Part shown: piece by piece, positions 46,830 through 50,062 of the stretch
Layout of the letters: the number at the start of each line of letters is the position of its first letter
Position numbering within the stretch: position 1 is the first letter of the stretch
Source: Kocuria sp. cx-455
Lineage (GTDB): Bacteria > Actinomycetota > Actinomycetes > Actinomycetales > Micrococcaceae
Assembly (NCBI RefSeq): GCF_014698015.1
Contig: NZ_JACXBS010000001.1
Span: 828,006 to 892,005, forward strand
Direction: 5' to 3'
DNA: 64,000 nucleotides
Made by a program: the position numbers and the translations under genes
The notes under the pieces: model-generated
What the model was told of the DNA's origin: nothing
Database searches by the model: none
What the model saw: the letters and a program-made list of their open reading frames with translations, nothing else

Positions 46830-47915
46830 GTGTCCGAACACCCCATTCGCGTGGCCATTGCAGGTGTGGGCAACTGCGCCACATCGCTGATCCAGGGCGT
46901 GCACTTCTACCGCGACGCCGACCCGTCCGAGGCCGTTCCCGGCCTGATGCACGTGCAGTTCGGTGCCTATCACGTGCGTGATGTCGAGTTCGTGGCGGCC
47001 TTCGACGTGGACGCGGCCAAGGTGGGCTCGGACCTCTCCGAGGCGATCCTGGCGTCCGAGAACAACACCATGAAAATCACGGATGTCCCGCACCTGGGCG
47101 TGACCGTCCAGCGCGGCCCCACCCGGGACGGGCTGGGCACGTACTACCGCGAGATGATCACCGAGTCCGACGCCGAACCGGTGGACGTTGCGCAAGCACT
47201 GCGCGATGCCCAGGTGGACGTGCTCGTGTCCTACCTGCCCGTGGGCTCCGAGGACGCGGACCGCTATTACGCGCAGGCGGCCATCGACGCCGGTGTGGCC
47301 TTCGTCAACGCGCTTCCCGTGTTCATTGCCGGCACCGAGGAATGGGCCCAGAAGTTCCGCGACGCCGGTGTGCCCATCGTGGGTGATGACATCAAGTCCC
47401 AGGTGGGAGCCACTATCACCCACCGTGTGCTGGCCAAGCTGCTCGAGGACCGCGGTTACGTGCTCGATCGCACCTATCAGCTCAACGTGGGCGGCAACAT
47501 GGACTTCAAGAACATGTTGGAGCGTTCCCGGCTGGAGTCCAAGAAGATTTCCAAGACCCAGGCCGTGACCTCCAACGTGCCGCACGAAATGCGCGCCAAG
47601 GACGTGCACATCGGCCCCTCGGACTACGTGGGCTGGCTGGATGACCGGAAGTTCGCGTTCGTGCGCCTCGAGGGCCACGGCTTCGGCAATGCCCCCATCT
47701 CGTTGGAATACAAGCTCGAGGTGTGGGACTCCCCGAACTCCGCCGGTGTGATCATCGACGCCATCCGCGCGGCCAAGATCGGCTTGGACCGCGGCATCGG
47801 CGGCCCGCTGACCTCGGCGTCCTCGTACTTCATGAAGTCCCCGCCAGAGCAGTTCGACGACGATACCGCTCGCGAGAACGTGGAGAAGTTCATCCGCGGC
47901 GAGATCGAGCGTTAA
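46830..47915 (+). CDS. ino1: Inositol-3-phosphate synthase
   Basis: Ino1 (361 aa) converts glucose-6-phosphate to 1L-myo-inositol-1-phosphate with NAD+. Actinobacterial type: [70 protein letters not shown] and [12 protein letters not shown]. It starts at GTG after AGGAGA. Its product is the acceptor used by MshA, whose gene lies 0.9 kb away on the opposite strand, and is also needed for phosphatidylinositol. Confidence 0.96.
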
Positions 47916-47931
47916 ACACGCCCGGCTACGA

Positions 47932-47977
47932 ACGACGGCGCCCGGTACCGAAGTGTTTCGGTACCGGGCGCCGTCGT
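47932..47977. terminator. Bidirectional terminator between ino1 and the phosphatase gene
   Basis: A perfect 21-bp inverted repeat (47932-47952 and 47957-47977) with a four-base loop. It serves two convergent genes. Confidence 0.85.
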
Positions 47978-47991
47978 GTGACGGGAGCGGC

Positions 47992-48789
47992 CTACCGCCG
48001 GTCCTGCCCCGCAAGTCCGGCGCGGGAGATGATGTAGTCGACCAGCGGGTTGTAGAGGTGCGGGGCCACGTTGTCGTCCAGGGGAACGGCGACTGCCACG
48101 TCGCCCTGCGCCTCGGCGACGAAGATTCCGGGGTCGTTGCAGTCACCCATGGCAATGGTGCGCAGTTTGGCCCGGGAACCGGCGTGGCCGGCCATGCCGT
48201 GATCGGAGATCACGAGGTCCGGCTGCTCGCGGCCATCCGCAGCCAGCTGCGCCAGCACCAGTCTCATGGGTTCGGGGGAGTGGGTGTGTCGCAGGCCGCC
48301 GTACTGTTCGACCATCACGACGTCCTCGATCTGGCGCACGTCGCCGTCCTCGAAGGGCAGGGCGCCGTCAACGCGGAGCACGCGGGCACCGGATTTTCGG
48401 GCTACGCGGGCGAGCCGGGCGTAGACGGGGGCGAGGCCGGCGGGGTGCGCCGTGGCGAACAACAAGCGTTTGCGGCCCTTGACGGCCTCACTGAAGATGT
48501 CCGCGTACGTGTCGAGCGCGGCAATGCACAGGTTCGCGGAAATGGAGTCCTGGCCCTGCGTGTACTTGGGGTCCTCATTGATGCCCACGCGCTCACGCAT
48601 GAGTTTGAACACGGACTTGTAGGTCCAGTTCCGGGTTTGCTCGACACCCATGTGTTGGTGCTGGTCACCCTCCAGGAAACCCTGGATATTACGCAGGTTG
48701 GCTTCGCGAGGGGTCGCTACGGCGCCGGTGATCCGGGATCGATCCAGATACCTGGCCAACGATTCACGGCTGAGATACGCGGTGGTCAC
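47992..48789 (-). CDS. Putative phosphatase next to mshA (candidate mycothiol MshA2)
   Basis: A 265-aa protein resembling an actinobacterial family annotated only as putative phosphatase. Conserved-looking blocks: LLFATAHPAGLAPVYARLAR, DLVISDHGMAGHAGSRAKLR, and IAMGDCNDPGIFVAEAQGD followed by VPLDDNV. It lacks the inositol monophosphatase signature. The start is GTG with no ribosome site; a TAGACT box ends seven bases upstream and overlaps the mshA stop codon. It lies directly downstream of mshA and convergent with ino1. The family assignment is from memory of motifs; the MshA2 role is inference from context. Confidence 0.6.
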   Translation of the reverse strand: MTTAYLSRESLARYLDRSRITGAVATPREANLRNIQGFLEGDQHQHMGVEQTRNWTYKSVFKLMRERVGINEDPKYTQGQDSISANLCIAALDTYADIFSEAVKGRKRLLFATAHPAGLAPVYARLARVARKSGARVLRVDGALPFEDGDVRQIEDVVMVEQYGGLRHTHSPEPMRLVLAQLAADGREQPDLVISDHGMAGHAGSRAKLRTIAMGDCNDPGIFVAEAQGDVAVAVPLDDNVAPHLYNPLVDYIISRAGLAGQDRR

Positions 48790-48796
48790 ACCCTCG

Positions 48797-48802
48797 AGTC
48801 TA
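48797..48802 (-). promoter_or_regulatory. -10 box of the phosphatase gene, leaderless
   Basis: TAGACT on the minus strand, seven bases before the GTG start. Its first three bases are the TAG stop codon of mshA. Confidence 0.55.
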
Positions 48803-50062
48803 GGTGGTTACGCGCTCGCCTGCGCAGCGCATGTAAGCCACCTCATGTTGGGCGGCCGCGTGATCCCATGTGAGTTCGCGCGCACGTTCCGCGGCGGCCC
48901 GGGACATGGCTCGCCAGTGTTCGGGGTTCGATGCCGCTCGGTACAGTGCTTCCGCCCACAGCTGAGGGGTGCGCCCCGGCACCAACCACCCGGTCCGGTG
49001 GTCCTGCACCGCGTAGCGCAGTCCGTCCACATTCGTGGCCAGCACCGGGGTTCCGCACGCCTGGGCTTCCAGGGCCACCAGTCCGAAGGTCTCGGACGAG
49101 GACGGCATGGCCACCGCGTCCGCGGAGCGCATGAGCTCGGCAAGCTCGGCGGCCGGCATGGAGCCCCGGAACTGCACGGCGTCCGCCACGCCGTGGTCCT
49201 GCGTCAGCCGGTGCAATTCGGCCAAGAACTCCGGGGAACCCGCGCCCGCCAGATTCAGGTGCACCGCGGACTCCGGATGCGTCCTGCGCAACAGCCCCAG
49301 GGCGGCCACCAGAACCTGCGGTCCCTTGAGGGGTTGCATGCGGCCGGCGCACAACACCGTGAACGGCGGTGCTCCGACGCGGTCGGATTGCGCGGCGCGG
49401 TGGGGGTGCGGGGCGGTTTTCACCACGGGATAAAAGACCGCCGGGTCCACCCCCGGAGGGATCACGCGAATCCGCTCGCGGGGTGCGCCGTAGAGCTCCA
49501 CCATGTGATCGGCCTCGGCCGGGGTGTTGACCACCAGGGTGCACGAGGTGGCCACCACCTCCTGCTCCGCCCGCTCGCGGGCCACCGGTTCCGGGTTCTC
49601 GCCGGGACCGGCCCGGAGGTTCTTCACCGCGGCGGACGTGTGCAGCGTCAACATCAACGGGATGTTGAGCTGTGCACGGATCTCGCGGCCCGCAACCGCG
49701 GACAGCCAGTAGTGGGCATGGACCAGGAGGGGGACGGCGTCGTCGTGGTAGAAGGCGGCGAGGGCGCGGCCGAACGCGAGCGCGAACGCGGGGAGGCGCT
49801 GCTTGGGAGCGGTGGCGGCACCGGGAACAGCGACGGCCAGCAGACGGGGGCCGTCCGGCAGCTGGTTCACGCTGACACCGGCAGGGTGGGACGGATCGCG
49901 GTCCAAGGTGGCCATGTCCACCGCCCAGCCACGCCGGGACAGTGAGCGGGCCAGGTGCAGCACGTACACGTTCATCCCACCGGCGTCCCCGGAGCCGGGT
50001 TGGTCCACGGGCGAGGTGTGCATACTAACGAGCAGCACGCGCGGCGGGGTCTGTTGAGGCAC
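48800..50062 (-). CDS. mshA: D-inositol-3-phosphate glycosyltransferase MshA
   Basis: MshA (420 aa), a GT4 retaining glycosyltransferase, joins GlcNAc from UDP-GlcNAc to 1L-myo-inositol-1-phosphate, the first step of mycothiol synthesis. The MshA-specific N-terminus SMHTSPVDQPGSGDAGGMNVYV is complete, with HAHYWLSA, the phosphate-binding AGRMQPLKGPQVLV, and SSSETFGLVALEAQACGTPV with the catalytic Glu. It has no ribosome site; TAGGCT ends six bases before the GTG. The phosphatase gene follows after ten bases. Confidence 0.93.
   Translation of the reverse strand: MPQQTPPRVLLVSMHTSPVDQPGSGDAGGMNVYVLHLARSLSRRGWAVDMATLDRDPSHPAGVSVNQLPDGPRLLAVAVPGAATAPKQRLPAFALAFGRALAAFYHDDAVPLLVHAHYWLSAVAGREIRAQLNIPLMLTLHTSAAVKNLRAGPGENPEPVARERAEQEVVATSCTLVVNTPAEADHMVELYGAPRERIRVIPPGVDPAVFYPVVKTAPHPHRAAQSDRVGAPPFTVLCAGRMQPLKGPQVLVAALGLLRRTHPESAVHLNLAGAGSPEFLAELHRLTQDHGVADAVQFRGSMPAAELAELMRSADAVAMPSSSETFGLVALEAQACGTPVLATNVDGLRYAVQDHRTGWLVPGRTPQLWAEALYRAASNPEHWRAMSRAAAERARELTWDHAAAQHEVAYMRCAGERVTT

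What the first reader, a model, noticed from the sequence alone, without database searches (positions are those of the whole stretch)
47992..50062. Candidate for the unidentified mycothiol phosphatase (MshA2) between ino1 and mshA
Seen: a phosphatase-like gene lies directly behind mshA (ten bases) and faces ino1. Known: Ino1 makes inositol-1-phosphate, MshA makes GlcNAc-inositol-phosphate, and a phosphatase named MshA2 must act before MshB; its gene was never assigned to my knowledge. Inference: the protein at 47992-48789, with DHGMAGHAG and MGDCNDPGIF motifs, may be that enzyme. Alternatives are a general sugar-phosphate phosphatase or an unrelated housekeeping role.
Basis: partly seen in the sequence, partly recalled or inferred. 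Interest (0 to 1): 0.8.

Follow-up and report, generated by a model that had tools for sequence, protein, structure and literature searches.

The report
Likely missing mycothiol phosphatase of Kocuria
In Kocuria and related bacteria an unstudied gene lies directly behind an mshA-type gene, the type that starts the making of the protective thiol mycothiol, and in one species the two are fused; it likely encodes the never-identified phosphatase of the second step, and would take turns with two other phosphatases in relatives that lack it.

Summary
Window 47992-48789(-) encodes a PF15698 protein, 10 nt behind an MshA-type gene and convergent with ino1. As the universal MshA2 it fails: PF15698 is in only 9 of 22 sampled genomes with MshC over cut-off and absent from C. 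glutamicum; in 27 of 40 loci from outside the family a histone-deacetylase-type gene is near, mshA in none. As a lineage-specific MshA2 it gained support. In 29 of 30 Micrococcaceae that carry it, it lies on the same strand directly behind the mshA-type gene (the 30th contig ends), while the surroundings vary. In Kocuria palustris the two form one 712-aa protein. Of 54 Micrococcaceae examined gene by gene, 53 carry exactly one of PF15698 (30) or one of two unnamed inositol-monophosphatase paralogues, A (9) or B (14); none has two. MshC is present in 148 of 149 Micrococcaceae. The predicted fold resembles ribosomal protein uS2; eight His/Asp positions are invariant in 63 of 63 sequences, suggesting a metal-dependent hydrolase. 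Activity and substrate are untested. Swaps number about five to seven on the trees, but supported branches force only two or three, so the exclusion is not yet shown to be independent of ancestry.

The parts
47992..48789 (-). PF15698 protein, 265 aa; predicted mycothiol-pathway phosphatase (candidate MshA2)
   Evidence: activity and substrate inferred
48800..50062 (-). MshA-type GT4 glycosyltransferase, directly upstream in the same direction; sole MshA match of the genome at E<=1e-80, under the TIGR03449 cut-off
46830..47915 (+). ino1, inositol-3-phosphate synthase, convergent
   Evidence: TIGR03450 over cut-off; the start at 46830 is my choice
47932..47977 (.). 21-bp hairpin between the two convergent stops, possible shared terminator
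   Evidence: terminator role inferred

Best explanation
The gene at 47992-48789 lies 10 bases behind an mshA-type gene and likely encodes a metal-dependent phosphatase that would remove the phosphate from the product of MshA, GlcNAc-inositol-phosphate, so that MshB can act: a lineage-specific MshA2. Shown: pairing with the mshA-type gene in 29 of 30 Micrococcaceae that have the gene, an in-frame fusion to it in K. palustris, and never both PF15698 and inositol-monophosphatase group A or B in 54 genomes. Inferred: that the protein hydrolyses a phosphate ester, that the ester is GlcNAc-Ins-P, that the invariant His and Asp bind metal, and that groups A and B do the same job in relatives without it.
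For: Pairing 29 of 30, same strand: 28 gaps of -4 to 83 nt (start codons chosen by me), one fusion, and one contig that ends before the neighbour. In 12 of the 30 the neighbour is over the MshA cut-off. In 29 fetched carrier loci mshA is present in 29 and ino1 in 18, and the flanks vary. Fusion: G344 open frame; P0192, 712 aa, a cluster of 84 member sequences, and P0193, 684 aa, both K. palustris, the only 2 hits of a search for long PF15698 proteins, in which the 7998 candidates sharing most words were scored. PF00459 matches: mean 1.7 in 30 carriers, 3.1 in 119 non-carriers. Exactly one of PF15698/A/B in 53 of 54 genomes. H115, H168, H170, D196, H197, D216, D219 and D239 are identical in 63 of 63 sequences.
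Against: PF15698 is missing from 13 of 22 sampled genomes with MshC over cut-off. In 27 of 40 loci from outside Micrococcaceae a histone-deacetylase-type gene lies in the stretch, and mshA in 0 of 40 at E<=1e-10, so the family has another role elsewhere. G259 has mshA and MshC but none of the three. Supported branches force only 2 changes of PF15698 on the RpoB+HisN tree and 3 on the HisN tree, and the sign tests have no power. IMPase group C is also rarer in carriers (16 of 30 against 23 of 24). Groups A and B are not visibly next to msh genes in 11 loci read by eye. One member of the mshA-linked branch, L147, has no mshA in its stretch. The Pfam name 'Phosphatase' is not backed by any experiment that I found.
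Confidence: 0.58

Rival explanations
1. It is an inositol-1-phosphate phosphatase that frees inositol from the Ino1 product, rather than acting on the MshA product.
For: It converges with ino1 here, and it excludes inositol-monophosphatase paralogues A and B.
Against: A fused or co-directional enzyme that destroys the acceptor of MshA would work against it; among 29 fetched carrier loci ino1 is in the stretch in 18, mshA in 29. A structural paper's abstract, seen in a listing only, says that phosphatidylinositol synthesis uses inositol phosphate in prokaryotes (PMC4634129).
Confidence: 0.14
2. It is a phosphatase for another product of the neighbourhood: UDP released by MshA, or the phosphatidylinositol-phosphate headgroup.
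For: Pairing and fusion with a UDP-sugar glycosyltransferase would also suit UDP removal; PMC4634129, on phosphatidylinositol-phosphate synthesis, holds the term 'unidentified phosphatase' (listing only).
Against: Neither would by itself predict exclusion with inositol monophosphatases in the UDP case; a lipid substrate does not explain the fusion to MshA.
Confidence: 0.1
3. The gene has a wider role linked to a histone-deacetylase-type enzyme and in Micrococcaceae is only a passenger in the mshA operon; the IMPase pattern reflects shared ancestry.
For: HDAC-type gene within the stretch in 27 of 40 loci outside the family; few independent swaps are supported; IMPase group C is also rarer in carriers.
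Against: Pairing kept across seven genera while flanks change, a fusion, and no genome with both. Carriers of 3.8-4.6 Mb also lack A/B and non-carriers of 2.3-2.6 Mb have one, so it is not mere genome reduction.
Confidence: 0.15

Closest known systems
PF15698 (Pfam 'Phosphatase')
   Same: Full-length match, 320 bits; its eight invariant His/Asp are shared
   Different: In 27 of 40 loci outside Micrococcaceae an HDAC-type gene is near, mshA in none; no paper on the family found
MshA2, the unassigned phosphatase of mycothiol synthesis
   Same: Genomic place, fusion to the preceding enzyme, presence of the pathway marker MshC
   Different: A minority of sampled genomes with MshC have it; activity untested
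Inositol monophosphatases (PF00459; SuhB, ImpA, CysQ, HisN)
   Same: Would do the same kind of reaction; mutually exclusive with two of their paralogue groups
   Different: No sequence match
Ribosomal protein uS2
   Different: No clear sequence kinship: hhalign probability 5% with E. coli S2 alone, PF00318 in 3 of 43 members at best E 0.041; carries an invariant His/Asp set

Membership tests
PF15698 | Score over the curated cut-off along the whole profile | tested here: met
   320.3 over 28.4 bits, profile 1-256 of 256
MshA2 | Hydrolyses GlcNAc-Ins-P | not testable with these tools
   needs an assay
MshA2 | Physical link to mshA | tested here: met
   29 of 30 carriers in the family, one of them a fusion; the 30th contig ends
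MshA2 | Present wherever mycothiol is made (if one universal enzyme) | tested here: not met
   9 of 22 genomes with MshC over cut-off; absent in C. glutamicum
Inositol monophosphatase PF00459 | Match to the profile | tested here: not met
   only PF15698 found for the window protein at E<=0.001 and at E<=10
MshA TIGR03449 (the neighbour in the window) | Score over the curated cut-off | tested here: not met
   347 under 462.5; 12 of the 30 neighbours of PF15698 pass; I call the window gene MshA-type
Ribosomal protein uS2 | Same fold | tested here: met
Ribosomal protein uS2 | Sequence homology | tested here: inconclusive

The most novel reading that the evidence does not exclude
PF15698 is a new class of metal-dependent phosphatase built on a uS2-like fold; in Micrococcaceae it is MshA2, and three phosphatases (PF15698, IMPase-A, IMPase-B) have swapped for one another in this single step, which explains why no universal MshA2 gene was ever found.
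Probability: 0.45. Interest if true: 0.85.

Novelty: new variant of a known kind. Interest (0 to 1): 0.72.

Why it matters
The phosphatase step of mycothiol synthesis is called unidentified in a 2020 review (PMC7278568, passage) and a missing predicted phosphatase in a 2010 study (PMC2834668, passages); other papers write the gene name mshA2 without a locus in the passages seen (PMC10893638, PMC10826361, PMC4360819). A fused, single-copy case in Kocuria makes the step directly testable, and the exclusion pattern names two inositol-monophosphatase groups as candidates in relatives. It would also give a first function and an unexpected fold to a large unstudied family.

Tried and rejected
Universal MshA2: rejected. 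A displaced phosphatase next to mshA in non-carriers: not tested systematically. In 33 non-carrier mshA loci a formate-tetrahydrofolate ligase (named by recall from its start) follows mshA in 7; in two, L121 and L124, ino1 faces mshA with nothing between; upstream of mshA in L113 a gene begins like a histidine-phosphatase or phosphoglycerate mutase (recall); few neighbours were scanned against families. Missing MshB in carriers: rejected, 149 of 149 have a match at E<=1e-40, though 0 of 149 reach that model's cut-off. MshA at E<=1e-80 is found in 26 of 30 carriers; in G304, G375 and G342 the neighbour is found only by tblastn, and in G323 the contig ends. Solved relatives by sequence: none below E 0.28. 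Known phosphatase folds: the 50 rows shown in each are ribosomal proteins or the laminin receptor precursor; a fold not listed is not excluded. NCBIfam names for IMPase groups A, B, C: none over cut-off; D is HisN-like, 270 of 275 bits with a trimmed sequence. My first gene caller missed genes and was replaced (then 30). Two species trees were wrong: seven antisense RpoB frames, 17 of 30 rows lost; only one search counts. The sign tests cannot reach 0.05. MshD was not tested. Of 149 genomes 54 had their IMPase genes typed; the other 95, all non-carriers, have match counts only. Paper searches with no assignment of MshA2 or function of PF15698 in what they showed: (open-licence PubMed Central; listings, plus passages). 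SCO2771 as a name for one Streptomyces member is recalled.

Full report
What is there. The window comes from a Kocuria-like actinobacterium: the nearest named proteins and loci are Kocuria. On the minus strand an MshA-type glycosyltransferase (48800-50062) is followed after 10 nt by a 265-aa gene (47992-48789), which converges with ino1 (46830-47915, +). A 21-bp hairpin at 47932-47977 separates the two stops. The 265-aa protein is PF15698 'Phosphatase' over its whole length, with no NCBIfam model and no solved relative by sequence. ino1 passes its model; the MshA-type protein is under the MshA cut-off (347 of 462.5) but is the only MshA match at E<=1e-80 in this genome. The genome has MshC over cut-off on another contig and a full-length MshB match under cut-off.

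Not a universal enzyme. In 246 genomes drawn from the phylum, PF15698 matched in 59, 58 over cut-off; MshC was over cut-off in 22, with 37 more matching at E<=1e-100 under it; PF15698 and MshC over cut-off occur together in 9. C. glutamicum, among the controls, has MshC and no PF15698. In 344 genomes of the class PF15698 was in 100. In 40 loci fetched from outside Micrococcaceae (36 genomes) an HDAC-type gene lies in the stretch in 27 and mshA in 0; the five HDAC-type proteins scanned were all PF00850. In an unnamed family (f5), which I take for Streptomycetaceae, most genomes have two copies; in the 4 genomes where I fetched both, one copy has the HDAC-type gene near and the other does not. 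So the family has a role beyond mycothiol.

A tight link within Micrococcaceae. Of 149 genomes, 30 from 7 of 31 genera have PF15698. In 29 of these 30 it lies on the same strand directly behind the mshA-type gene; in the 30th the contig ends. Gaps are -4 to 83 nt in 28; in G344 there is no stop between the genes and one 712-aa frame reads through both. A search limited to long proteins with a PF15698 region returned two, both Kocuria palustris: P0192 (712 aa, cluster of 84 member sequences) and P0193 (684 aa); only the 7998 candidates sharing most words were scored. Surroundings differ between genera (alr-tsaE side, formate-THF ligase, ino1) but the pair is kept: in 29 fetched carrier loci mshA is present in 29 and ino1 in 18. 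The mshA-linked proteins form one branch (SH-aLRT 100) that also holds one protein from another family of the order, L147, with no mshA in its fetched stretch.

Mutual exclusion with inositol monophosphatases. PF00459 matches average 1.7 in the 30 carriers and 3.1 in the 119 non-carriers. The tree gives four groups, each one side of a branch (SH-aLRT A 100, C 99, B 93, D only 63): D (HisN-like, all 54), C (16 of 30 carriers, 23 of 24 non-carriers), A (9 non-carriers) and B (14 non-carriers), plus nine rows outside these. No carrier has A or B; 23 of 24 non-carriers have exactly one; G259 has none. Thus 53 of 54 genomes have exactly one of PF15698, A or B. Group C is rarer in carriers too, but not exclusive. 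Genome size does not explain the pattern: carriers of 3.8-4.6 Mb lack A/B and non-carriers of 2.3-2.6 Mb have one. Shared ancestry may explain part: PF15698 changes 5 times on an RpoB+HisN tree of 30 genomes, where B is one clade and starred branches force only 2 changes, and 7 times on a HisN tree of 54, with 3 forced. MshC is over cut-off in 148 of 149, the miss being a 91% complete non-carrier.

How it would work. The AlphaFold2 model is confident (pLDDT 96.4) and matches ribosomal protein uS2, while sequence kinship to uS2 is not established. A shared fold shows no function. I infer a metal-dependent phosphomonoesterase. Its place behind and, in K. palustris, inside the mshA reading frame points to the MshA product; exclusion with IMPase paralogues points to an inositol-phosphate-type ester; both meet in GlcNAc-Ins-P.

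What was known. A review says that an unidentified phosphatase acts at this step (PMC7278568, passage). In M. tuberculosis, impA, suhB and cysQ mutants had normal mycothiol, and impC was proposed for the step without proof (PMC2834668, passages). Other papers use the name mshA2 with no locus in the passages seen. A and B are not named by any NCBIfam model over cut-off; their best solved matches are SuhB-type proteins. My searches, over open-licence PubMed Central only, showed no assignment for PF15698 or for MshA2.

Verdict. The most useful new facts are the K. palustris fusion and the three-way exclusion, which give a direct test and name candidates for relatives.

Noticed in passing
L075 5659-7797 (+); P0192, P0193: Kocuria palustris carries the MshA-type and PF15698 proteins as one 712-aa protein.
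   Followed up: yes
L092, L094, L096, L098, L102-L110, L150-L166 (27 of 40 loci read outside Micrococcaceae): Recurring cluster: HDAC-type protein, PF15698, and in many a ~70-aa protein, a CLP1-type protein, a SAM hydroxide adenosyltransferase, an epimerase and an acyltransferase; what this set does is unknown.
   Followed up: partly
L149 2949-7742: PF15698 gene directly behind three genes that look like an ABC uptake system (by recall from their starts, not scanned).
   Followed up: no
L070 198-991: In a Kocuria atrinae contig the PF15698 match falls into two overlapping pieces; a sequencing error or a broken gene.
   Followed up: no
G259 (and same genus G288, G311): Has mshA and MshC but neither PF15698 nor IMPase A or B (G259 typed; the other two have the same count of two PF00459 matches).
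   Followed up: partly
149 Micrococcaceae genomes: No MshB match reaches the TIGR03445 cut-off in 149 of 149, though full-length matches are common; the model seems too strict for this family.
   Followed up: no
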